Assembly: GCA_024278345.1 (NCBI GenBank) | Contig: JAJRTK010000011.1 | Location: forward strand, 1 to 27,989 | Length of the DNA stretch: 27,989 nt | Direction of reading: 5' to 3' | From: a bacterium | GTDB taxonomy: Bacteria > CSSED10-310 > JAJRTK01 | Shown: one piece after another, positions 1 to 11,079 of the stretch | Position numbering within the stretch: position 1 is the stretch's first letter | How the letters are laid out: every line of letters begins with the position of its first letter | The notes under the pieces: generated by a model | Databases searched by the model: none | Told to the model about the DNA's origin: nothing | What the model saw: the letters and a program-made list of their open reading frames with translations, nothing else | Translations under genes and position numbers: made by a program

Positions 1-41
1 ATTCGCTCCTCCAACAGCTTGAAGGGGGGGAGCGCCCGTGA
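1..41 (+). CDS. 3' end of an upstream gene (partial)
   Basis: An open frame runs in from the window edge and ends at TGA 39-41, giving a C-terminal tail reading SLLQQLEGGERP. Its stop overlaps the GTG start of the next gene as GTGA, the usual geometry of translationally coupled genes. Only 12 codons are visible, so identity is unknown and the frame could be chance. Confidence 0.4.
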   Translation, partial: SLLQQLEGGERP

Positions 42-1057
42 AGAGATTTCTGTCTTTGAAGAGGTTCGAGGCCGGCTGCCCTGGTTTCTCCCTTGTTTTT
101 CTGTTGCTTTTCTTTTTTGTGGACGGAGTGGCTGTAGGGGCGCCGGAAGGGGAGAGCGGGACTTCTCCCAACACTGAGAAGTCGAAGCCGCCCGCAGTTT
201 CAGATTCGGCTGGCGGGAAAAGCGTTGCTGAAGCTATTGGTTCGAAGCAGGAAGAGGATTCCGCGGTGGTGGCTGGAGATGGGGGTCCAGAGTCTTCGGT
301 CATGGAGCAGCTTGGTGGGGTAACATCAGAGGATGGAACGTCGTTGCCTCCTGGATCGGCGGGTGGGCCGGAGCTTTCTTCTTGTGGAAAGGCGCGGGAA
401 CATTCCGCCCCTGGTGAGAGGGGCCTTTATCTCTATCGCCGGGGGCGCAGGCATGCCCTGTCGTTCGATGGCGCGAGGGTGGCCGTTTTCTTGAAACGCT
501 TTGAACCATCCCAGGCGGAGAAACTCTTGGAGGAGGGGCTTCTCAAAGGAGCCAACATCCTGTCGTCGAATCCCGCGGAAAAGCTGCTCCTGCTCCAGTT
601 GGCGGATGGCTCCAAGTTGGGCTGGAAAGAGCTTTCAGAGTGGATTGCCACCCGTCCGGAGATCGACTCGGCCAGTTTTGTTCTTTTGGATGAGGGCAGG
701 GAGCTGGTTTTGAGCAGGCGTTTCCTGGGACAGCTCTGTTCCTTCGTAAAACCTGGCGAGCTTCAGGGCCTTCTTGAGGAGTGGAAGGTCAAGTTGGTTC
801 GTGAACTGGAGGTGTCGCCGGGGTTGTTGTTGTTGGAAGTGGAATCGAGCGACCCTGGCCGTACCCTGGAAGTGGCGAACCGGTTTTGGGAGAGCGGATT
901 CTTCGAGGAAGTTTGGCCAGATTTCTTGACGGAGGTTTTTCCTCGATCTGGTGGTGGGGCTGGCAAGATCCCGGGATCCTTGGGGTTGCCTCCCGGGGCT
1001 GGCGAGACTCGGCCCGTGAAGGCGGATTCCGCCGGCTCGCCGGTTTCTCCGGAATGA
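38..1057 (+). CDS. Exported protein resembling a stand-alone subtilase (S8) N-terminal prodomain
   Basis: This 339-residue protein starts at GTG 38 behind a G-rich ribosome site (GGGGGAG, about 25-32). A basic start and hydrophobic stretch (about 17-35, FSLVFLLLFFFVDG) form a signal peptide. Residues 36-125 are low-complexity, rich in Gly, Ser, Pro and Glu. Residues about 128-305 look folded: LYLYRRGRRHALSFDGARVAVFLKR, split as LYLYRRGRRHALSFDG then ARVAVFLKR, and later FVKPGELQGLLEEW plus FWESGFFEEVWPDFLTEVFP. This pattern resembles the prodomain of fervidolysin/subtilisin-like proteases, where the last segment directly precedes the catalytic domain. Here the protein ends about 30 residues later in a Gly/Pro tail, with no catalytic Asp/His/Ser motifs. 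Prodomains of that family fold and inhibit the protease; a free-standing inhibitor role is inference. No second half of a protease follows at 1058-1142. The family match is by eye. Confidence 0.6.
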   Translation: MKRFLSLKRFEAGCPGFSLVFLLLFFFVDGVAVGAPEGESGTSPNTEKSKPPAVSDSAGGKSVAEAIGSKQEEDSAVVAGDGGPESSVMEQLGGVTSEDGTSLPPGSAGGPELSSCGKAREHSAPGERGLYLYRRGRRHALSFDGARVAVFLKRFEPSQAEKLLEEGLLKGANILSSNPAEKLLLLQLADGSKLGWKELSEWIATRPEIDSASFVLLDEGRELVLSRRFLGQLCSFVKPGELQGLLEEWKVKLVRELEVSPGLLLLEVESSDPGRTLEVANRFWESGFFEEVWPDFLTEVFPRSGGGAGKIPGSLGLPPGAGETRPVKADSAGSPVSPE

Positions 1058-1142
1058 ACAACATGCTATATCGGGTTGCCCCGCGGGTAGCTCGATGGAA
1101 TCGGAGCAGAAGCTCCATGAACCTAGATGAAGGAGAACGAGA

Positions 1143-2231
1143 ATGAGAAGAACGGTTCTCTCCATCTCTTTGCTGGTTGCCAGTGGAGCGGTGTTGACAT
1201 TGGGACAGCCAGTAAAGGCGGGTGAGGCGACAACGCGGGACATCGTGGTGTCCAGCGCCGAAAAGATCAAAAATGACAACGATGCACTGAGGATCAGTGT
1301 TTGGGCCGATCACGAGGACAGCACATACAGAATTGGCGAAAAGGCTGTTTTCTTTTTCAAGACAAACGTCGATGCCTACGTGACGCTCTTGAATATCGGC
1401 ACCAGCGGGACGATCACGGTGTTGTTCCCCAACAGTTGGGACAAGAAAAACTTCGTTCAGGGCGGCAAAGTCTATCGGCTTCCACCGAAGAGCGCCGATT
1501 ACCGGTTTGACATGACCGGGCCTCCTGGAACCGAGGTCTTGAAGGCCATCGCCACGCTGGATGCCCACGATTTTAGCGGACGGTTGCCTTCAGCCGGAGA
1601 TTTTCGGCAGGTCAAGGGAAGTGGTTCCGACTATCTGGAGCGCGACATCAAGCCGGTGCTGGACAAGAAAAAGAAACAGGATTGGGCGGAATACACCAAG
1701 GTGATCCGGACGGTGGAAGGCCGGCATCGGGTCGATAGGGATGACCGTCGAAGGGATCGCGACGACCGGCGGCGACGCCGCGGGGACCGACGGGAGCATC
1801 GCTCCCTCAACGTCGAGGTCTGGACCGACTATCCGGACTATCGCCCAGGGGACGAAGTGGTCTTTTATGTCCGGGCGAACTTGGATTGTTACTTGACGCT
1901 TCTCGATTTCGGGACCAGCGGAGAGGTGAAGATCCTTTTCCCCAATCGGTACGACAAAAAGAACCACATTCAAGGGGGCAAGACCTACCGAATTCCGGCC
2001 AAGGGCGCCAAGGAGGCTTACCGAGTGGAGGGTCCCCGGGGCACGGAGATCATCCGGGCCATTGCCACACTTGATGATGAACCGGTTTATCGGGGCAGCT
2101 ACAGCTACTCCGACAGCGACTACCAGAGGTGGGATTCGAGGTCCGCGGAGCGGGATATCCAGGTGGTTCACGACCGCGTGAAACGCCGCTCTCGCGTTGC
2201 GGAGACGGTTCTCGAGATCGAGATCGAGTAG
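1143..2231 (+). CDS. Exported tandem DUF4384 protein
   Basis: This 362-residue protein begins at ATG 1143 behind AAGGAGA (about 1130-1136). Residues 1-26 form a signal peptide ending VKAGEA. Two DUF4384 domains are visible, about 49-142 and 222-312. Each has the core of a hydrophobic strand, then TLLNIGTSG / TLLDFGTSG, then a LFPN segment (ITVLFPNSWDKKN; VKILFPNRYDKKN), then QGG and a YR[LI]P strand. The repeats are so alike that an internal duplication is evident. The linker (about 192-220) is almost pure Arg/Asp. DUF4384 is known mainly as a C-terminal partner of caspase-like domains and kinases, with no established biochemical role. Two of the following caspase genes carry the same domain, so this is probably a structural or adaptor partner. 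Location is inferred as periplasm or outer surface. Confidence 0.85.
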   Translation: MRRTVLSISLLVASGAVLTLGQPVKAGEATTRDIVVSSAEKIKNDNDALRISVWADHEDSTYRIGEKAVFFFKTNVDAYVTLLNIGTSGTITVLFPNSWDKKNFVQGGKVYRLPPKSADYRFDMTGPPGTEVLKAIATLDAHDFSGRLPSAGDFRQVKGSGSDYLERDIKPVLDKKKKQDWAEYTKVIRTVEGRHRVDRDDRRRDRDDRRRRRGDRREHRSLNVEVWTDYPDYRPGDEVVFYVRANLDCYLTLLDFGTSGEVKILFPNRYDKKNHIQGGKTYRIPAKGAKEAYRVEGPRGTEIIRAIATLDDEPVYRGSYSYSDSDYQRWDSRSAERDIQVVHDRVKRRSRVAETVLEIEIE

Positions 2232-2250
2232 TTGGACGGCGGTGGAAGCT

Positions 2251-2296
2251 GTGAGGGGGGCTGTTCGGTCATTGCATGGGCGAACAGCGCTCTCAC
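2251..2296 (+). other. Long intergenic hairpin between the DUF4384 and caspase genes
   Basis: A perfect 8-bp stem, GCTGTTCG (2260-2267) with CGAACAGC (2281-2288), encloses a 13-nt loop. An outer arm, GTGAG (2251-2255) with CTCAC (2292-2296), extends it imperfectly. There is no immediate T-run (a T-rich stretch comes only about 25 nt later), so it is not a standard intrinsic terminator. It may be an mRNA processing or stabilising structure. Confidence 0.5.
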
Positions 2297-2339
2297 CCTC
2301 CGGTCGTTCCTGGATCTTTTTCTTGAGGCGGAGGAGCCA

Positions 2340-4187
2340 ATGGAAGAGAATAGACTCACTAGATCCCAAGTTGGTTGCCTTGCCGGCAGCCTCTTGTTCC
2401 TCTTGGCGGCTGCAACTTCCGTCCAGGGCGCTAGCCGGGCGCTCTTGGTGGGTGTCGGCATCTATGAAAACCACGATATCCCCGTGTTGAAGGCCATACC
2501 CAATGACTTGCGGCTGATCCGTGGGGTCCTGGAAACGAAGTACGGGTTCGAGGGGCGTATCCAAGTGCTCCGAGACGAACAGGCGACCAAGGAAAGAGTG
2601 TTGGCCACTTTCAAAGAGTGGCTCATCCAGGGGACGGCTCCCGGTGATGTGGCGGTCTTCTATTTTAGTGGCCATGGCGCTCAGATCCCCGACGGCAACG
2701 AGGACGAGAAGGATGACAAGTTGGACGAGGTTCTTTGCCTCTACGACTTTGGCAAGAAAGGAGAGACCGATTCCTCCGTTGGCGCCTTCGTCGATGATGA
2801 GCTCCAAGGTCTCGTGAAGCAGCTAGAGGGGAGAACCATCTTCTTGATCATCGATTCTTGCTATTCTGGCACGATCCAGCGGTCATTCTTGCCCACCAAG
2901 GGACTTTCCCGGTCGGTCTTTGTCCCTGCTGGCGAGGTTGGCGGTAGCTTGCCCCACAAGGGATCGCCGGGTTTCCCGTCACTGGATCAAACCGATCTGG
3001 ATCTCGACGATCTGCTCGACGATGAAGGTGATGGCGGTCTGGAGGCTCGCCAGGACAATCTCATTGTTCTGGCTGCGGCCCAGAGCAACGAGCAGGCGGC
3101 TCAAGTCTTTCTTCCCGGTGGCAATCAAGTTGTGAGCGCCTTCACCTACGGCTTGGTCAAGGGCCTCGATGGCGGCGCCGCCGATGGTGTCGGAGGCCCC
3201 AAAGACGGGCGCGTCTCTTACGAAGAGCTTTGGGAGTATACTCGCGTGGTGCTCAACAAGCTTGGCAAGCGGCAGACGCCTTTCGTCGATCCGCCCCTGG
3301 AATCCACTTCTCTCCAAAAGTCGGTCTTCGCCTTTGTGGGTCCCCCCTCTCCTCCGGGCCAGAGCGCGGAATTGACCGCGCCGAGGATCGCCATGGAACC
3401 ATTGGTGGTCACCGTCACTGGCGCACCATCTTGTGGGGCCAAGACTGAGGCTGGACTCCAGGGCTTTTTGAAGAAAACCGGTTTTGTCCAGGTGGCGACA
3501 TTGGGTCAGCGGCACCAGGCAAAGCTCCACGCGGAATGTGGTGTCGCCGATTCTAAGGAGCTGAAGGTCCGGCTCATCGAAGAGGCGGACGTTCTCCATC
3601 CGGTGCGATCTCTTTCGATGCAAGGGGAACTCCTTGAAATGGCCATGGCCGAAGGTCTATCGGCGGATCTCGAGACTGCTTACGTCGGGGTGAACCTTCG
3701 GCGGCTTCAACAAAACCAGAAGGTGCCCGCTTTGGAATTCTGGGTGGAAGGCCCCAAGGGGAAGCTCAAGGAGCCGGTTTTCAAGTTCGGGGATCTTCCC
3801 AAGCTCAAAATGCGCAGCCAGAAAGCGGGGTTCCTCTACCTTTTTGTCACCAATAGCCAGGGGCAGATGGCGTTGCTGTTTCCCAACCGGTGGCGGAAGT
3901 CCCCGAGGATTGAAGCCAACACAGTTTTCATGATTCCGGAGATCGAAGTGACGCCTCCGGAGGGTTCGGACCTCCTCAAGGCGGTCCTGTTCTACGATGC
4001 TCCCGTGCAGTTTCCCGGGCTTCCCCTGGACAAGCTCGACCGGGAGGATTTCCTGGTGCTCGATCCCCAGGGCGGCATGGGGAAGAACCTGGCCCGCACG
4101 GTGGTGGAGACACTCTATGCTGCTTGCCAACCCGGAAAGACCAACTGGAATGCCGCGACGCTCCAAACCTGGGCCGTGGCCAAATAG
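2340..4187 (+). CDS. Exported caspase-like protease (peptidase C14) with C-terminal DUF4384
   Basis: The ATG at 2340 was chosen over in-frame TTG 2232 because GGAGGAG sits just upstream and the product (615 aa) then starts with a clean signal peptide (about 11-30, VGCLAGSLLFLLAAATSVQG). Residues 32-345 are a caspase fold: RALLVGVGIYEN, then the catalytic His in YFSGHG (H112) and catalytic Cys in IDSCYSG (C174). Acidic stretches near 120-130 and 240-260 are present. Residues about 360-480 are unassigned. A DUF4384 domain lies at about 480-556 (LYLFVTN, MALLFPNRW). The catalytic dyad is intact, so a Lys/Arg- or Asp-type endopeptidase is plausible, but specificity is not readable. It follows the tandem DUF4384 gene by 108 nt and precedes the TPR-OmpA gene by 63 nt on the same strand, suggesting one transcription unit. 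Confidence 0.9.
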   Translation: MEENRLTRSQVGCLAGSLLFLLAAATSVQGASRALLVGVGIYENHDIPVLKAIPNDLRLIRGVLETKYGFEGRIQVLRDEQATKERVLATFKEWLIQGTAPGDVAVFYFSGHGAQIPDGNEDEKDDKLDEVLCLYDFGKKGETDSSVGAFVDDELQGLVKQLEGRTIFLIIDSCYSGTIQRSFLPTKGLSRSVFVPAGEVGGSLPHKGSPGFPSLDQTDLDLDDLLDDEGDGGLEARQDNLIVLAAAQSNEQAAQVFLPGGNQVVSAFTYGLVKGLDGGAADGVGGPKDGRVSYEELWEYTRVVLNKLGKRQTPFVDPPLESTSLQKSVFAFVGPPSPPGQSAELTAPRIAMEPLVVTVTGAPSCGAKTEAGLQGFLKKTGFVQVATLGQRHQAKLHAECGVADSKELKVRLIEEADVLHPVRSLSMQGELLEMAMAEGLSADLETAYVGVNLRRLQQNQKVPALEFWVEGPKGKLKEPVFKFGDLPKLKMRSQKAGFLYLFVTNSQGQMALLFPNRWRKSPRIEANTVFMIPEIEVTPPEGSDLLKAVLFYDAPVQFPGLPLDKLDREDFLVLDPQGGMGKNLARTVVETLYAACQPGKTNWNAATLQTWAVAK

Positions 4188-4250
4188 AGGTCGAAAGGCG
4201 CCCCACCACCCAAATAGATTCCCCCCGCGGTTTGGTAAGGAGAAGAAGCA

Positions 4251-5228
4251 ATGGATGAACGGAGAGTAGCATTGGCGGCGCTCGCCACCATGATCTGGCT
4301 GGGAGCAGGTCCGGTTTTTTCGGCATCTCCATGTTCCCAAGAGGCCACCAAGTCGTATCGAGAGGGTCGGCGTCTTTTCATAGGAAAGGAGTATGGAAAG
4401 GCGGAGCAAGAGCTTCGGCGGGCCAAGAACCTTTGCCCCGGACATGCCCTGACGTTGACCTATTTGGGGTTGGCATTGGCAAGAGGGGCGGCTTCGGTTC
4501 CGGCGCTCCAGCGGAAGGCCAAGCTGGATGAGGCCAGGGATCTGTTCCAAAGGGCGTTGGGGCTTCGGCCGGGCTTGCCGCGGGTCAATATGGCCTTTGG
4601 GACACTTTACATGGTGGGAGGAGACTACGCTTCCGCCGAAGTGAAGTTCCAACAGGCGGTCTCGAAGTTGGAACGGCTGCTGGAGATTGTCTCCAACGAA
4701 CAAAAGAGAAGGGCTTACGGGAGTCTCTTAAGGAGGGCGCGGGATGGGCTGCAAGTTGCTCGCTCGCTGAAGACGGGGATGGCCAATGAGCTGAGCGAGG
4801 AAGAGCTGCTCTTGCGGTTTCTTCCCACCAAGGCGAACGAGAGGCCAAGGATTCCCTTCAAGATCCAGTTCGCTTTCGATTCGCCATCTCTCGAACCGGA
4901 CGGGCGGAAGATCCTGGATAGGGTTGCCAGGGTCCTCTCCAGGCCCGTTTTTGACGGTTCTGTTTACGAAGTAGGAGGCCACACCGATCAGTGTGGCGAT
5001 GCCAATTACAATCAATTGCTTTCAGAAAAGCGCGCGAAAGTCGTTCGGAAATACCTCGTGACGAAGGGGGTTCCTTCATCGAGGCTCCAGGCTCGAGGTT
5101 ATGGAAAAGCTGCTCCTCTTCTAAAGGAAAGCAAGGATTGCCGCGCCATGACAAGGGCTCAGAAGGATGCCGATTCGGTGCTGGCCAAGAATCGCCGGAC
5201 CGAGTTCACTTATCTGGGAGGCCAGTGA
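4251..5228 (+). CDS. Exported TPR protein with C-terminal OmpA peptidoglycan-binding domain
   Basis: This 325-residue protein starts at ATG 4251 after AAGGAGAAG. A signal peptide covers about 1-25. TPR-like helical repeats span about 30-150 (YREGRRLFIGKEYGKAEQEL; ARDLFQRALGLRPGLP; GDYASAEVKFQQAV). Residues about 203-323 are an OmpA-type domain: IQFAFDSPSL, GHTDQCGD (D246) and NQLLSEKRA (R261). The Asp and Arg are 15 residues apart, as in the diaminopimelate-binding pair of OmpA domains, so binding to peptidoglycan should be retained. Placed between two caspase/DUF4384 genes (63 nt after the first, 5 nt before the second), it could anchor or organise them at the cell wall; that role is inference. 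Confidence 0.9.
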   Translation: MDERRVALAALATMIWLGAGPVFSASPCSQEATKSYREGRRLFIGKEYGKAEQELRRAKNLCPGHALTLTYLGLALARGAASVPALQRKAKLDEARDLFQRALGLRPGLPRVNMAFGTLYMVGGDYASAEVKFQQAVSKLERLLEIVSNEQKRRAYGSLLRRARDGLQVARSLKTGMANELSEEELLLRFLPTKANERPRIPFKIQFAFDSPSLEPDGRKILDRVARVLSRPVFDGSVYEVGGHTDQCGDANYNQLLSEKRAKVVRKYLVTKGVPSSRLQARGYGKAAPLLKESKDCRAMTRAQKDADSVLAKNRRTEFTYLGGQ

Positions 5229-5233
5229 GGTCG

Positions 5234-6694
5234 ATGGCAAACAAGAAAACCGTTTCCCGGGCTTTTTTCTTCGTGGCAGGGCTCTTCTTTCTTCTTGGAA
5301 CCGCGAAATTGGCTGGGGCTGCCAAGAAGGCGCTTTTGATTGGGATCGATGATTACCAGATTGTTCGTGACATTATCGGCTGCCGGAATGATGTTCAGAG
5401 CATGGAGACTCTTCTTTCCACCAGCTTGGGTTATCGTACGGCGGACATCCGAAAGCTCTTGGATTCCCAAGCGAGCAAGAACCGCATCCTCAGCCTGATC
5501 CAGGAACATCTGGTGGATGGCGTAACGCCGAAGGATGAGGTAGTCTTTTTCTTTTCCGGCCATGGCACCCAGGTTCGGGATGAGAACGGTGACGAGGATG
5601 ACCGGATGGATGAAGCACTGGTGCCATGGGACACAAGAGTTCAGGGCGGGGTTCCCCAAAACCTGCTTCTGGATGACGAGCTTGGGGCGGCTCTTGCCGC
5701 CTCCGCCGCATCCAGGGTTCTGGTCATCGTCGATTCGTGCCATTCCGGGACCATCACAAAAGGTGGACTCTCTTCCAAAGAGGCCTGCCAAAGTGAGCAA
5801 ACGCTCAGGCTTCAACGTCTGGGCTCTCGATATCTGGACCTCTTCTGTGAACAGGGCAGTCCGCCACCGGCGAATCGGTCGTTGAGCCGGGATCTTACCT
5901 ATGTTGCCGAGGACTTGGGAGCATCAGTTGTGATGGTTTCAGCAGCTCAGCCATCGGAGCTGGCGATGCCGATACAAATCGATGGAGGACCCCACGGAGC
6001 CTTCACTTACTTTTTTACTCGTGGCGTGGCCGGGGAAGCGGACAAGAACGGGGATGGCCAGGTGAGCTTCGCCGAGGTCAAACAGTTCGTTGATCGCGAG
6101 GTGGAAAAGAAGGATCGGTTCGATGAGATCGACCAGAAGGTCTATACAGGCGTTTCGAACCTTGATGCTCCGGTTTTTCCACGCTCCACGCCGACGGCTT
6201 GGGAGGGAGTCGATCAGGGGGCCGGCGCTTTCGCCGTGAAGCTCCAGCCTTCGGGAAGAATCCTCAAAGCCGGCACGCCACTGACGTTCCAGGTGACTAC
6301 GGAAAAAGAGGGATACCTTATCTTGTTGGAGCGCTCACCCGCTGGCCGGCTTCGTGTGTTGGTCCCCAACGCCTACCAGGAGGAGGTCGGGCCGATCCAC
6401 CTGCGGCCAGGGACGACGAGGATTCCCGGAGAAATGGCCTTTTGGACGCTAGAGACCAGCGGTCCGTCGGGAAAATGGGAGTACAAGGCCATCGTCAGCC
6501 GAAAAAAAATGACCCATGCCCAGCTCGTGGCCGTGGACGAGGGATTTTTGCGCGCCGAGGGGAGTGCCGTGCCCACTCTCTTGCGGGGCGTGCGGGATCT
6601 TGTCATCGATGCCGGTCAGCCGGTGGGAGGAGTCCAAAGTTCCAAGGCTCCGCCCAAATATGGTGTGGGCGCGGCGGCGGTGGACATCCGTTGA
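5234..6694 (+). CDS. Exported caspase-like protease (peptidase C14) with EF-hand-like loop and C-terminal DUF4384
   Basis: The same frame is open from 4991, but that part overlaps the OmpA coding sequence. ATG 5234 lies 5 nt after the OmpA stop, has GAGG upstream, and gives 486 residues starting with a signal peptide (MANKK, hydrophobic 10-30). The caspase domain spans about 32-315: KALLIGIDDY, catalytic His in FFFSGHG (H110) and catalytic Cys in IVDSCHSG (C169). Residues 270-281 (DKNGDGQVSFAE) fit a 12-residue EF-hand calcium loop, seen in some bacterial caspases. DUF4384 lies at about 333-426 (GYLILLERS, LRVLVPNAYQ). It resembles the 2340-4187 product in architecture but lacks that protein's long middle region. 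The short gap implies co-transcription and probably coupled translation with the OmpA gene. Confidence 0.9.
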   Translation: MANKKTVSRAFFFVAGLFFLLGTAKLAGAAKKALLIGIDDYQIVRDIIGCRNDVQSMETLLSTSLGYRTADIRKLLDSQASKNRILSLIQEHLVDGVTPKDEVVFFFSGHGTQVRDENGDEDDRMDEALVPWDTRVQGGVPQNLLLDDELGAALAASAASRVLVIVDSCHSGTITKGGLSSKEACQSEQTLRLQRLGSRYLDLFCEQGSPPPANRSLSRDLTYVAEDLGASVVMVSAAQPSELAMPIQIDGGPHGAFTYFFTRGVAGEADKNGDGQVSFAEVKQFVDREVEKKDRFDEIDQKVYTGVSNLDAPVFPRSTPTAWEGVDQGAGAFAVKLQPSGRILKAGTPLTFQVTTEKEGYLILLERSPAGRLRVLVPNAYQEEVGPIHLRPGTTRIPGEMAFWTLETSGPSGKWEYKAIVSRKKMTHAQLVAVDEGFLRAEGSAVPTLLRGVRDLVIDAGQPVGGVQSSKAPPKYGVGAAAVDIR

Positions 6695-6767
6695 GCGGGA
6701 CCCTGCCTCGCCTCACTTTTTGGGCGCGGGACTCCTACAGGGCACAATTCAAGCATATTGCTTTCTT

Positions 6768-7024
6768 TTCTTTGGGTTGCGTTCCGCTCCCGGCGGCGGC
6801 AATCCAAGAGGGGAAGGAACCGCAAAGCCGATTGGCGCGGGCCTCTGCGGCTCACTTGCGGTGCAACGGATGTTTGGTCCAGTTTTTCGGTTTGCTGGGC
6901 CAGTATGTGGACTGGCGGGCGGAGCTGTTTTTTTTGTGGGCGGAAGCCGTGGCGTGGCGGGTGGCGGGAAGGCGAGTAGCGTGGGTGGGACGCCCACGAT
7001 GGGAGCGGAACCCAACCCAAAGAA
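6768..7024. repeat. 257-bp segment bounded by 24-nt inverted repeats
   Basis: The left end 6768-6791 begins TTCTTTGGGTTGCG and ends TTCCGCTCCC. The complement of 7001-7024 reads the same with one mismatch (C to G at position 13), so 23 of 24 match. The interior does not look duplicated and encodes no transposase. This could be a miniature element remnant or a pair of oppositely oriented short repeats. Confidence 0.55.
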
Positions 7025-7086
7025 GGCCATGCAATGCAGGGAAGTCATTCACTGTCGGGACGGACGACTGTTTGAGGATCTTCGGA

Positions 7087-7115
7087 TTGACGTTCCAGGA
7101 GTGCGATCCTATTCT
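7087..7115 (+). promoter_or_regulatory. Candidate sigma70-type promoter for the PEGA caspase gene
   Basis: TTGACG (7087-7092) and TATTCT (7110-7115) are separated by 17 nt, 65 nt before the ATG at 7180. The -35 box matches 5 of 6 consensus bases and the -10 box 4 of 6. Found by eye only. Confidence 0.4.
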
Positions 7116-7179
7116 GGTAGCCATTGGCCAATCGATCTTATGATGATGGCAATGGAGTGACTCCCAGGAGGGTGGAAGG

Positions 7180-9282
7180 ATGATTCGTTTCGAGCCCAAA
7201 GCAGGGAGCTTGCTACTTGCAGGCTGCGTTGTGGCAATCCTTGCGGCAGTTTCCGTGGCGAACGTTCTGGCGCAAGATGATCGGGGCTTTGGTGTGCGGA
7301 GGGCTTCGTCGTCGGCGGAGAAGAGAGTTGCGCTTCTTATAGGGAACACCGACTATCCCACAGCTCCGCTAAAAAACCCGGCGAACGATGCTCGGGCCAT
7401 GGCCCAAGCTCTTCGGGAGGTAGGGTTCGACGTCGTCATAGAAAAGCTTGACGCCACCCAGCGAGAGATGGACGATGCGGTAGAAGAGTTCGCCAAGCAG
7501 ATCACCAACAAGGGGGTTGCCTTTTTCTTTTATGCGGGACACGGGGTCCAGGTGAACAGCCGAAACTACCTGATTCCCGTGGATGCTCGTATCTCTTCGG
7601 AAAAGGATGTGAAGTACAAGGCGCTGGATGCTCAATGGGTTGTGGACCGGATGGACGAGGCGGGTGCGGAACTGAAGATCGTGATTCTGGATGCCTGTCG
7701 GAACAACCCTTTTACACGTTCGAGCCGCTCATCAGTGCAGGGATTGGCCGCCATGGATCCGGCGGATGGGACGATCCTGACGTATGCGACGGCGCCAGGC
7801 TCGGTGGCGTCGGACGGGACAGGAGACCACGGCCTGTTTACGGAGAAGTTCTTGCGGCACATGAAGACTCCCGGCCTTGATGTCTTCGGTGTATTCCAGC
7901 GCGTGGGCAAGGACGTGCGGCAAGCGAGTGGCAACAAGCAAAAGCCCTGGCTTCATACCTCTTATGTAGGAGATTTTTATTTTGTTTCGCCGAAGGCTTC
8001 GCCGCCTGCTGCGCCGCCCCGGCCGGCTTTGCCGGTGTCCGAGGCATCAGGGGTGCCGTCTCAGGGGGCAGTTTCCTCCGTGACGGCCATGGGCACGTTG
8101 CAGGTCTATTGTGATCAACCGGGCTGTGTGGTGACGGTCGATGGCAAGCAAGCGGGCAAGACGGTGATGGGGCAGTGGCTTCAGGTTTCCACGGTGGCGA
8201 AAGAGCTTGAGGTTGTGGTGAGCAAGGAAGGTTTCGAGGAGGTAAGGGAGCAATTCGTACTTTTGCCTGGGCCACCGCACCAGATCGTCGCCCAGCTTGC
8301 TGGGTCGAAGGTGCCGGCGGCGACTGTGGCCACGGTGGGAGCGCCCGCTGCGACACCTGTGCTTCGGCCGCTTTCGGAGCTGATGAAGAAGGCGGTGGTG
8401 GTGATCCGCTCCAATGTGGAGAACGACGACATTCTCATCGACGGAACCAGTTACGGGCCCACGACGAACAATGGTCGGAGGATCGAACTCAATGCCGGTC
8501 CCCACACCATCGAGGTGCGAAAAGAAGGGGGTTATACTTCTTGGAAGAAGGAGGTTCGTCTTCAGCCTGGTGAAGAGCTGCCTCTCTTTGCCGACGTTGT
8601 GAAGAGCGCCGGCTCAAGGGTCCAGAGGCCAGCCGTCTCAGGGCCGGCCTATCTTGTCGTCCGTTCCAACGTGAGCAACGACGCTCTCTCCATCAATGGA
8701 AAAAGTCATGGCGCCACGGGACCCCGTGCGATTCCCTTGGCACCTGGAGAGTATTCGGTGATGGTGGAGAAGAAGGGGTACGAGCGTTGGGAGGAGCTCG
8801 TTACGTTGGCCCCGGGCGAAACGCGGACCCTTCGTGCTCAGTTGGCTCGGATTGGCAGTACGAGGGCCCATCGCTCTGTGGCTTCGTCTTCGGTGGGGAA
8901 TGGGCTGGCCGGGCGCTGGATAACGGGGGCGTACGAGGCGAATGGTGCTCAGGGAACCCTGACCTTCGACGTGAACTTGAGTGGTGGTGCCCAGGTGTCG
9001 GCCACAGCGGTTGTTGTGCTTCAGATGGCTAATCCGTCGGGGTTCGGGACGGTTCAGATGTCGGTTTACCGGGCGTTGGCCGGTAGCTACTCCGGCAATC
9101 AGCTTTGGCTTCAGAGTGACAACTTGACGGTGACGAACACGGCGACGGGGCAGACTGAATCCACGTACAGTCCAGTGACCGTGCAAGGCAACCTCTCCGC
9201 GAACGGGATGACTCTGACGTTGGTTTGGAACAACGGTGTGACGAATATTCTTACCCGGGCCGCGGGTTTTGGCGGGAATTGA
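7180..9282 (+). CDS. Exported caspase-like protease (C14) with three PEGA-like repeats
   Basis: This 700-residue protein starts at ATG 7180 behind CAGGAGGG. A signal peptide covers about 1-32 (LLLAGCVVAILAAVSVANVLA). The caspase domain spans about 47-270: RVALLIGNTDY, catalytic His in FFYAGHG (H121), NYLIPVD, and catalytic Cys in ILDACRNNP (C173). These motifs belong to a different C14 branch from the two upstream caspases (YAGHG/DACRNNP rather than SGHG/DSCxSG). Three PEGA-like beta repeats follow at about 305-372, 405-472 and 489-556, each with a strand, a D/N-G-K/T turn, G-hydrophobic strand and KEG/KKGY. The last 125 residues (576-700, from AGRWITGAYEANG) are a beta-rich domain I do not recognise. 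PEGA domains are associated with surface or periplasmic proteins. The gene ends 6 nt from the convergent ABC gene stop. Confidence 0.9.
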   Translation: MIRFEPKAGSLLLAGCVVAILAAVSVANVLAQDDRGFGVRRASSSAEKRVALLIGNTDYPTAPLKNPANDARAMAQALREVGFDVVIEKLDATQREMDDAVEEFAKQITNKGVAFFFYAGHGVQVNSRNYLIPVDARISSEKDVKYKALDAQWVVDRMDEAGAELKIVILDACRNNPFTRSSRSSVQGLAAMDPADGTILTYATAPGSVASDGTGDHGLFTEKFLRHMKTPGLDVFGVFQRVGKDVRQASGNKQKPWLHTSYVGDFYFVSPKASPPAAPPRPALPVSEASGVPSQGAVSSVTAMGTLQVYCDQPGCVVTVDGKQAGKTVMGQWLQVSTVAKELEVVVSKEGFEEVREQFVLLPGPPHQIVAQLAGSKVPAATVATVGAPAATPVLRPLSELMKKAVVVIRSNVENDDILIDGTSYGPTTNNGRRIELNAGPHTIEVRKEGGYTSWKKEVRLQPGEELPLFADVVKSAGSRVQRPAVSGPAYLVVRSNVSNDALSINGKSHGATGPRAIPLAPGEYSVMVEKKGYERWEELVTLAPGETRTLRAQLARIGSTRAHRSVASSSVGNGLAGRWITGAYEANGAQGTLTFDVNLSGGAQVSATAVVVLQMANPSGFGTVQMSVYRALAGSYSGNQLWLQSDNLTVTNTATGQTESTYSPVTVQGNLSANGMTLTLVWNNGVTNILTRAAGFGGN

Positions 9283-9288
9283 TCGCGG

Positions 9289-11079
9289 TTAGGTTTCCAT
9301 TGGGGTCGGTTGCGCGGAGTCGTCGCCTTGGTGGTAGAGTCGTGCGTAGACGCCGCCCAGGTCTAGTAGTTGGCCATGAGTGCCTTGTTCCACGACTCGG
9401 CCCTGTTCCAGGACCACGATTTGGTCCGCGTTCTTGATGGTGGACAATCGGTGAGCAATGACAAGGAGTGTTCGCCCGTGGACGATGCGGCTCAGGGCTT
9501 CCTGGATCTTTTGTTCCGACTCTGAATCCAGGGCGGATGTTGCTTCGTCCAGGATCAAGATAGGTGGGTCCTTGACCAGCGCCCGGGCAAGGGCCAGTCT
9601 TTGTCTCTGGCCTCCGGAAAGGTTGGCGCCTCGGTCCCCAAGATGCGTATCCAGGCCATTTGGGAGAGCCTCGACGAATTCCCGGGCGGCGGCGGCCCGC
9701 AGGGCGCGAACCAGGACGGAATCGGGGACGTCTTTCTGTCCGTAACAGAGGTTTTCGCGCACTGTAGCGCGGAACAATACGGTCTCTTGGCTCACAAGCC
9801 CGATGTTATTCCGAAGGCTCTTGAGCTTGATCTCCTTCAGCGGGACATCCCCGATCTCGATCTGCCCAGCCGTTGGCTCGTAGAGTCTGAGAAGGAGATG
9901 CCCGATGGTGGTTTTTCCTGCTCCCGACGTGCCGACGAGGGCGATCATTTTGCCGGGTTCGAGCTCCAGATCCACACCATCAAGGACGGGTTGTTCGGTG
10001 TATTTGAAACTAACTTTTCGGAATCGCACACGGAATCTCCCGCCGGGCAACTCTTGTTCGCCGGTATCTTCTTCAGTCCGCGTGTCGAGGATCTCGAAGA
10101 TGCGGGTTGCGGCAGCCAGTGCCATCTGGAGCTGAGTCCCGGCTCTGGAGAGTGATTTGACTGGCTTGTACATGGCGAAAAGGGCGGCCATGAAGGCGAA
10201 AAAGGTGCCCGTCGTGGTTTCGCCCTGGAGCACTTCCAGGCCGCCAAGGTAGATGGTGGTTGCGATGAGAAGCGCGGCAAAAAGCTCGATGAGGGGCGCC
10301 GTCATCGCTTCGAGTCTTGCGGCGTTCAGGCTGTGATCGCGGTAGCCGTCATTGGCCTCGTCGAAAACGCGGCGTTGGGAAGGCTCCATTCGAAAACTCT
10401 TGACGATGAGGATTCCCGCCAGGGCCTCTTGGAGGACCGAGCTGAGCTCTCCCATCCGAATTTGCCCGTGGCCGCTGGCCTTTCGGATCCCCTCGCTAAG
10501 TCGAAGAAGAGGTGCCAGAAGTAGCGGTAACCCCACGATAGAGATCAGGGCGTAGCGCCAGGACAACCAGATGAGGGCCGCCGCCAAAAACAGCAGGGAA
10601 AGGGCTTCTTTGATGATTTCCGCCACCTGCCGCGACAGAGCCGTCTCCACTTGAGTCGTGTCGTGGAGCACGCGGCTCAGGAGATCCCCTGTACTCGCTT
10701 GCTGAAAGAAGCTGAGGGGCAGTCCCAGCATCCGCCCGAACAGTTCCCGCCGAAGATCCGCGATGACGTTTTGCCCCACTTGGCGCATGAGGTAGGTCGC
10801 CCCGAAGTTCGCCACTCCCTTGAGCAGGAAAATCCCCACTAGAATCAGAGGGATCTGTACAAGACTTTCGGGATCGTTCTCCACGAAAATCCGATCGAGC
10901 ATCGGCTTGATGAGGGGGAAGGGAAGCGCGCTGGAAAACCCGAAGAGGAGCATGGCTGCAAGAGCCAGAGCGACCCGAGTCGAGTAAGGTCGAACCCAGT
11001 GGAGAAGCCGGAGATAGAGCTGCATGAGGAACCGTTTGGGAGGGTGGTTGGTTTCTTCGCTGGTCCGGAAAGAAGCCAT
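9289..11079 (-). CDS. msbA: MsbA-like ABC exporter (lipid A / lipid flippase family)
   Basis: This 596-residue half-transporter fuses an N-terminal membrane domain (about 20-330, six hydrophobic spans) to an ATPase (about 350-590). The ATPase has Walker A GTSGAGKTT (383-391), signature LSGGQ (487-491), Walker B ILILDE (507-512) and the H-loop His in AHRLS (H543). Length and order match MsbA, which flips lipid A core across the inner membrane as a homodimer. Drug-type exporters share the layout, so substrate is inferred. Its ATG is 3 nt after the RND gene stop on the same strand, so they are one operon. No strong ribosome site is visible, consistent with coupled translation. Confidence 0.82.
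   Translation of the reverse strand: MASFRTSEETNHPPKRFLMQLYLRLLHWVRPYSTRVALALAAMLLFGFSSALPFPLIKPMLDRIFVENDPESLVQIPLILVGIFLLKGVANFGATYLMRQVGQNVIADLRRELFGRMLGLPLSFFQQASTGDLLSRVLHDTTQVETALSRQVAEIIKEALSLLFLAAALIWLSWRYALISIVGLPLLLAPLLRLSEGIRKASGHGQIRMGELSSVLQEALAGILIVKSFRMEPSQRRVFDEANDGYRDHSLNAARLEAMTAPLIELFAALLIATTIYLGGLEVLQGETTTGTFFAFMAALFAMYKPVKSLSRAGTQLQMALAAATRIFEILDTRTEEDTGEQELPGGRFRVRFRKVSFKYTEQPVLDGVDLELEPGKMIALVGTSGAGKTTIGHLLLRLYEPTAGQIEIGDVPLKEIKLKSLRNNIGLVSQETVLFRATVRENLCYGQKDVPDSVLVRALRAAAAREFVEALPNGLDTHLGDRGANLSGGQRQRLALARALVKDPPILILDEATSALDSESEQKIQEALSRIVHGRTLLVIAHRLSTIKNADQIVVLEQGRVVEQGTHGQLLDLGGVYARLYHQGDDSAQPTPMET

What the first reader, a model, noticed from the sequence alone, without database searches (positions are those of the whole stretch)
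38..9282. Candidate envelope caspase module: three C14 proteins with DUF4384, PEGA and OmpA partners
In under 9.3 kb, three exported caspase-fold proteins (H112/C174, H110/C169, H121/C173 all present) lie with a tandem DUF4384 protein and a TPR-OmpA peptidoglycan-binding protein. All carry signal peptides, unlike most bacterial caspase/metacaspase proteins discussed in defence, which are cytoplasmic. The OmpA protein sits between the two DUF4384 caspases. I infer a wall-anchored protease complex or cascade; role unknown.
Basis: partly seen in the sequence, partly recalled or inferred. Interest (0 to 1): 0.75.

Follow-up and report, generated by a model that had tools for sequence, protein, structure and literature searches.

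The report
Wall-anchored bacterial caspase-like protease operon
An uncultured bacterium carries a gene cluster for exported caspase-like proteases paired with a protein that grips the cell wall; the same pairing recurs in at least five bacterial phyla, sometimes fused into one protein, but what it cuts, and why, is unknown.

Summary
Window 1143-6694 holds, on one strand, a tandem DUF4384 protein (B), a metacaspase-DUF4384 (C), a TPR-OmpA protein (D) and a second metacaspase-DUF4384 (E). A caspase-PEGA gene (F) follows after a 485-bp gap and is probably a separate unit. Catalytic His/Cys are intact in all three caspases, and all have signal-peptide-like N-termini (rule-based test). A second contig overlaps the window's start and adds a DUF4384 protein and a subtilisin-DUF4384, which overlaps gene A (38-1057) by 4 bp; A resembles a stand-alone copy of its propeptide. 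In 80 named loci chosen by the caspase alone, OmpA is adjacent or fused in 24 of 52 C14-DUF4384 loci, against 1 of 22 loci with C14 but no DUF4384. The association crosses at least five phyla and is scattered over the gene tree. Three single proteins fuse OmpA, C14 and DUF4384; nine gene pairs overlap by 4 bp. Wall-binding residues are kept in 35 of 37 OmpA proteins. I conclude that this is a wall-tethered, extracytoplasmic metacaspase module. The cascade idea is plausible but untested. OmpA in metacaspase operons was counted in 2012, so this is a new variant of a known kind.

The parts
1..41 (+). 3' end of the subtilisin-DUF4384 gene, whose body lies on contig G000:C451 (L056 277-2760, minus strand); its TGA stop (39-41) overlaps the GTG start of gene A (38) by 4 bp
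   Evidence: C451 overlaps the window start over 317 bp with 2 mismatches; S8 7.6e-47 and DUF4384 1.2e-10; coordinates
38..1057 (+). Gene A: secreted protein resembling the subtilisin's N-terminal propeptide without a catalytic domain; probable inhibitor or folding helper of that subtilisin
   Evidence: No Pfam hit; colinear with the propeptide by BLASTP, E 0.002; Smith-Waterman 63 against 31 +/- 5 shuffled, 0 of 1000; signal rule
1143..2231 (+). Gene B: tandem DUF4384 protein with an Arg-rich stretch (1722-1829) between the two domains
   Evidence: Pfam; linker; tandem relatives in L070, L087, L098, L148
2340..4187 (+). Gene C: exported metacaspase-like C14 with C-terminal DUF4384; H112 at 2673, C174 at 2859
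   Evidence: Pfam; residues; alignments
4251..5228 (+). Gene D: exported TPR-OmpA protein, predicted peptidoglycan anchor; D246 (nt 4986) and R261 (nt 5031) match the diaminopimelate-binding pair
   Evidence: Pfam; residues compared with D271/R286 of A. baumannii OmpA (PMC6572160)
5234..6694 (+). Gene E: exported metacaspase-like C14 with C-terminal DUF4384; H110 at 5561, C169 at 5738; starts 5 bp after D
   Evidence: Pfam; PDB metacaspase hits; model matches Arabidopsis metacaspase 4, Z 21.4; residues
7180..9282 (+). Gene F: exported MALT1/paracaspase-like C14 with three PEGA domains; neighbour, probably a separate transcription unit
   Evidence: Pfam; MALT1 hits; 485-bp gap holding the only promoter-like match of 1-9700 (number not above chance); other F-like genes lie elsewhere in this genome

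Best explanation
The core (subtilisin-DUF4384, A, B, C, D, E) is an operon for an extracytoplasmic proteolytic assembly held on peptidoglycan. D is the anchor: its OmpA domain binds the wall and its TPR part, or the shared DUF4384 modules, hold the proteases. C and E are metacaspase-type cysteine proteases that, by family, should cut after Arg/Lys and may need Ca2+. DUF4384, an immunoglobulin-like sandwich shared by B, C, E and the subtilisin, is the common docking module, and B is a catalysis-free scaffold or substrate with an Arg-rich linker. A restrains or helps fold the subtilisin, which may activate or be activated by the caspases. The likely role is regulated processing of envelope or extracellular proteins in response to envelope stress or contact. 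Shown: gene content, catalytic residues, the operon-type arrangement, the recurrent OmpA partnership including natural fusions, and conserved wall-binding residues. Inferred: physical tethering, cleavage specificity, activation order, substrate and role.
For: Domains, dyads and fold. OmpA is next to or fused with C14-DUF4384 in 24/52 loci against 1/22 for C14 without DUF4384 (Fisher p 3.7e-4); by gene distance, 27/206 at 1-2 genes against 5/388 farther away (p 3.8e-9). OmpA+C14+DUF4384 single proteins occur in L071, L074 and L088, which puts the caspase on the peptidoglycan side. Nine OmpA/C14 gene pairs overlap by 4 bp. Wall-binding residues are kept in 35/37 OmpA proteins. The label is spread over the tree with at least 11 forced changes. 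Other DUF4384 proteins in such operons carry LysM or PG_binding_1. Other proteases: subtilisin-DUF4384, trypsin-like (L052), clostripain-DUF4384 (L092), and trypsin-C14-DUF4384 fusions reported in Rhizobiales (PMC6426788). Inhibitor-like genes: A, serpins in L098, L116 and L138.
Against: No activity, binding or expression data. About half of C14-DUF4384 loci have no OmpA neighbour; in a small second sample OmpA was adjacent in 1 of 4 loci. The 80 loci are the ones most similar to E, so the rate is for that kind. The order and the partner proteases differ between lineages, which argues against a rigid complex. Signal peptides rest on a rule of thumb. A resembles a propeptide only weakly and matches no inhibitor family. 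The Arg-rich linker of B is not general.
Confidence: 0.5

Rival explanations
1. A set of exported proteases for nutrient gain or general turnover in the periplasm or on the surface, grouped for common expression, with OmpA only keeping them on the cell; no regulation or cascade.
For: Several protease classes occur in and around such operons: S8, trypsin-like, clostripain, C14. All are exported by the signal rule in the window.
Against: Stand-alone DUF4384 proteins, serpins and a stand-alone propeptide point to control. Metacaspases are narrow cutters by family (own knowledge), poor as scavenging enzymes.
Confidence: 0.2
2. A maturation protease for envelope or surface proteins, in the manner of PorU or sortase: the caspases process one class of exported protein at the wall.
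For: Clan CD enzymes serve as processing proteases elsewhere (legumain and GPI transamidase are, with metacaspases, the fold neighbours of E). An autotransporter-type protein lies in the L074 operon.
Against: No shared sorting signal or secretion system was found in the operons. Hits of D to the type IX protein PorE are far below that family's cut-off.
Confidence: 0.15
3. A defence or killing system: caspases as suicide or fratricide effectors, as in cytoplasmic NLR-type and gasdermin-type systems.
For: C14 is a known effector domain of bacterial conflict systems (PMC7159879, listed). PADLOC's general caspase model gives partial matches.
Against: Exported, no NTPase or sensor partner; below the cut-off of the conflict-associated caspase family (63, 60 and 80 bits against 140); Zorya-type hits of D cover the OmpA domain only.
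Confidence: 0.08
4. The caspases and OmpA are neighbours only because envelope genes cluster; there is no shared function.
For: Half of the C14-DUF4384 loci lack an OmpA neighbour.
Against: Sharp fall with gene distance, C14 without DUF4384 as control, 4-bp overlaps and three fusions.
Confidence: 0.07

Closest known systems
Bacterial metacaspases in OmpA-containing operons (Asplund-Samuelsson et al. 2012, PMC3501461)
   Same: They counted OmpA in 14 of 217 predicted metacaspase operons and found multi-metacaspase operons (up to three), and proposed extracellular action for some.
   Different: In the text read here there is no module, no DUF4384 link, no fusion and no anchor role; this report ties OmpA to the DUF4384-bearing subset and adds the subtilisin, propeptide-like and serpin partners.
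Trypsin-p20(QC)-DUF4384 proteins of Rhizobiales (Klemencic et al. 2019, PMC6426788)
   Same: A serine protease, a caspase fold and DUF4384 occur together, there in one chain.
   Different: There the caspase is a QC pseudo-variant; here the His-Cys dyads are intact and the serine protease is a separate subtilisin.
Eukaryotic metacaspases (Arabidopsis metacaspases 4 and 9, yeast Yca1)
   Same: Fold (Z 18-21), dyad, and the acidic region after the catalytic His in E.
   Different: Those are not exported with a DUF4384 and a wall-anchor partner.
OmpA/Pal family peptidoglycan anchors
   Same: OmpA C-terminal domain with the Asp/Arg pair that binds diaminopimelate.
   Different: D has N-terminal TPRs instead of a beta-barrel (OmpA) or lipobox (Pal).

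Membership tests
Peptidase family C14 (PF00656) | Profile match above the curated cut-off | tested here: met
   C 61.6, E 84.0, F 145.2 bits against 21.4
Peptidase family C14 (PF00656) | Catalytic His-Cys dyad | tested here: met
   C H112/C174, E H110/C169, F H121/C173; invariant in 46 aligned C14-DUF4384
Peptidase family C14 (PF00656) | Proteolytic activity | not testable with these tools
   needs purified enzyme
Metacaspase (p20 + p10) | Metacaspase fold including the p10 part | tested here: met
   E model residues 6-271 align with 6w8r, Z 21.4, rmsd 2.5 over 203 residues, 30% identity; C judged by sequence only
Metacaspase (p20 + p10) | Arg/Lys specificity and Ca2+ dependence | not testable with these tools
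   acidic residues conserved (D99, D102, E103, D123, D124 near-invariant; D143 invariant), activity not measured
OmpA-like peptidoglycan-binding domain (PF00691) | Profile match and diaminopimelate-binding Asp/Arg pair | tested here: met
   75.4 bits against 27.2; D246 and R261 at the same spacing as D271/R286
OmpA porin or Pal lipoprotein | N-terminal beta-barrel, or lipobox | tested here: not met
   D has signal peptide plus TPRs; scores below the OmpA (277) and Pal (125) family cut-offs
Conflict-system caspases (EACC1-associated, NF047832) | Score above the family cut-off of 140 bits | tested here: not met
   63, 59.6 and 80.1 bits
Zorya (ZorB) | MotB-like protein beside ZorA | tested here: not met
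   D matches ZorB models in the OmpA part only; none of the five other proteins tested (A, B, C, E, F) matches a Zorya model
Subtilisin propeptide / inhibitor I9-like (gene A) | Recognisable homology to a subtilisin propeptide | tested here: inconclusive
   Colinear BLASTP E 0.002 and shuffle test 0/1000, but no Pfam inhibitor match
Alpha-2-macroglobulin MG2 domain (for DUF4384) | MG fold and sequence | tested here: inconclusive
   2p9r Z 7.8, rmsd 2.2 over 78 residues, in the range common for beta sandwiches; MG2 4.2e-5 and A2M_BRD 2.6e-5 on one DUF4384 protein; Foldseek itself has no match at E 0.001 or better

The most novel reading that the evidence does not exclude
A wall-tethered extracytoplasmic proteolytic cascade of bacteria, working like a simple complement or clotting system: zymogen caspases plus serine proteases (subtilisin, trypsin), restrained by serpins or propeptide-like inhibitors, and assembled through DUF4384 domains that are distant relatives of the macroglobulin (MG) domains of alpha-2-macroglobulin and complement.
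Probability: 0.13. Interest if true: 0.88.

Novelty: new variant of a known kind. Interest (0 to 1): 0.6.

Why it matters
Bacterial caspase homologues are common but their natural roles are mostly open, and work has centred on cytoplasmic death and defence. A recurrent partner that fixes the enzyme at the cell wall gives a place, a compartment and concrete experiments (localisation, pull-down, substrate mapping). If the protease-inhibitor pairing is real, it would be a regulated extracytoplasmic proteolytic network in bacteria of several phyla.

Tried and rejected
A genome scan with E alone found no relative, and the first alignment was too diverse to search with; alignment A2 worked. A general Arg-rich linker in tandem DUF4384 proteins as conserved substrate: rejected, Arg/Lys content is 28% in B and 21% in L087 but 5-10% in others. 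F as part of the core unit: set aside for the 485-bp gap and the F-like paralogues elsewhere. One origin of OmpA linkage: not supported, at least 11 changes forced, and the label is no more clustered than when shuffled. C and E as a recent tandem duplication: not shown, both are long unplaced branches. RNA elements: none at Rfam gathering scores. A shared fold of known function for DUF4384: no Foldseek match at E 0.001 or better, and second-look matches stay under Z 8. Promoter and terminator scans were near chance. Published work on DUF4384 is almost absent: five papers in the library.
Full report
WHAT IS THERE. The window is G000:C211:1-27989 of a fragmented draft genome (6.06 Mb, 550 contigs, 88% complete). 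Its phylum is that of a genome deposited as Candidatus Schekmanbacteria: G003:C78 and JACPHN010000225.1 have the same length and gene order. Genes A-F lie on the + strand, followed on the - strand by an ABC transporter and an AcrB-like pump (named by eye). Pfam names B as two DUF4384, C and E as C14-DUF4384, D as TPR-OmpA and F as C14 with three PEGA. E starts at 5234, 5 bp after D. All of A-F pass a simple signal-peptide rule and five cytoplasmic control proteins fail it.

BEYOND THE WINDOW. Contig C451 (3.7 kb) overlaps the window start over 317 bp with two mismatches. It adds, upstream and in the same direction, a DUF4384 protein (282 aa) and a subtilisin with C-terminal DUF4384 (S8 7.6e-47) with the D, H and S motifs present. 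The subtilisin's stop overlaps A's start by 4 bp. A is colinear with the subtilisin's propeptide (BLASTP E 0.002; Smith-Waterman 63 against 31 +/- 5 for shuffled sequence, 0 of 1000). I read A as a stand-alone propeptide relative, probably inhibitor or folding helper; this is inference. The contig join rests on the overlap alone.

IS THE GROUPING CONSERVED? I searched genome contigs with an alignment of C14-DUF4384 proteins, so OmpA played no part in choosing loci, and labelled genes with profiles built here. Of 52 loci with a C14-DUF4384 gene, 24 have OmpA as immediate same-strand neighbour or fused, and 33 have it somewhere in the stretch; of 22 loci with C14 but no DUF4384, 1 has it adjacent (Fisher p 3.7e-4). 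By distance from the caspase gene, OmpA makes up 21 of 114 genes at one step, 6 of 92 at two, and 5 of 388 farther away (p 3.8e-9 for 1-2 against 3 or more). In L071, L074 and L088 OmpA, C14 and DUF4384 are one protein. Nine OmpA/C14 gene pairs overlap by 4 bp, including the relative L100, where the order is DUF4384, a 264-aa frame, trypsin-like protease, DUF4384, TPR-OmpA, C14-DUF4384. The organisms include Alpha- and Gammaproteobacteria, Thermodesulfobacteriota, Verrucomicrobiota (L099), Myxococcota (L124) and the window's own phylum; a further locus of a Candidatus Entotheonella genome also has it (L148). On a tree of 46 proteins the linkage needs 13 changes and at least 11, so it is not a trait of one close group. 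Caveats: the 80 loci are those most similar to E, and in a small second sample OmpA was adjacent in one of four loci (one of these four, L147, was already in the first set as L081).

FUNCTIONAL RESIDUES AND FOLDS. The catalytic His and Cys are invariant in the 46-protein alignment. Thirty-five of 37 OmpA proteins in the loci keep the Asp and Arg, 15 residues apart, that bind diaminopimelate in A. baumannii OmpA (D271, R286; PMC6572160); D has them too. The E model has a confident caspase core and an unstructured stretch after the catalytic Cys (residues 155-198 of the model under pLDDT 50). It aligns best with Arabidopsis metacaspase 4 (Z 21.4, rmsd 2.5 over 203 residues). F is closest to MALT1 by sequence. 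DUF4384 alone is modelled at pLDDT 90 as a beta sandwich. The nearest solved domains by second look are complement C5 and the alpha-2-macroglobulin domain 2p9r (Z 7.8 each; 2p9r rmsd 2.2 over 78 residues), in a range common for such sandwiches; one DUF4384 protein also matches MG2 and A2M_BRD profiles weakly.

OTHER PARTNERS. DUF4384 is also attached to clostripain (L092), a protein kinase (L105), LysM (L092) and Sel1 plus a peptidoglycan-binding domain (L115). Serpin genes lie in the operons of L098, L116 and L138. Trypsin-C14(QC)-DUF4384 single proteins are published for Rhizobiales (PMC6426788). So DUF4384 recurs on exported proteases and wall-binding proteins, which is why I propose it as the docking module.

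MECHANISM. Shown: exported-type genes in an operon-like row, intact dyads, a wall-binding partner with the right residues, and repeated linkage and fusion. Inferred: D tethers C and E; DUF4384 mediates assembly; the caspases cut after Arg/Lys; A controls the subtilisin; the role is regulated processing in the envelope. Rivals are plain scavenging proteolysis, maturation of surface proteins, and defence or killing. Defence fits worst: the proteins are exported, have no NTPase partner and miss the conflict-caspase cut-off.

KNOWN OR NEW. OmpA was counted in 14 of 217 metacaspase operons in 2012, with its role left open, and sigma-70 and protease-inhibitor operons were noted there (PMC3501461). 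I found no paper that describes the DUF4384-linked, wall-anchored module (the library is partial). I therefore call it a new variant of a known kind.

Noticed in passing
L053:6418-9445 (G001) and L064:7203-10155 (G003:C143): ECF-type sigma factor, zinc-finger anti-sigma factor with a periplasmic part (DUF4384 in L053), and a C14 protein whose C-terminus looks like an outer-membrane barrel, in a row; sigma-70 beside metacaspases is known from Myxococcus (PMC3501461).
   Followed up: partly
L098:6947-8383, L116:11400-12647, L138:11584-12846: Serpin genes in operons with C14-DUF4384: a protease-inhibitor pairing in bacteria that deserves its own survey.
   Followed up: partly
window 1722-1829: Arg-rich stretch RHRVDRDDRRRDRDDRRRRRGDRREHR between the two DUF4384 domains of B, a possible target of Arg-cutting caspases; partly shared with L087, not with others.
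   Followed up: partly
G000:C451 (L056) against window 1-317: Two contigs overlap by 317 bp with two mismatches, as from strain variation that broke the assembly.
   Followed up: yes
L052:12370-13164: DUF4384-like gene of the Schekmanbacteria relative appears frameshifted (decay or sequencing error).
   Followed up: no
L096:4731-6077, L111:1-1302: DUF3160 proteins recur beside C14-DUF4384 genes (4 of 58 operon neighbours scanned); function unknown.
   Followed up: no
L130:8970-9848: A lytic transglycosylase (SLT) gene sits between a DUF4384 gene and a C14-DUF4384 gene; genes of similar size sit at the same place in L126, L139 and L144.
   Followed up: no
L071:5262-7841, L074:428-3196: Long proteins (the L074 one with an autotransporter domain) stand at the head of the operons that hold the OmpA-C14-DUF4384 fusions.
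   Followed up: no
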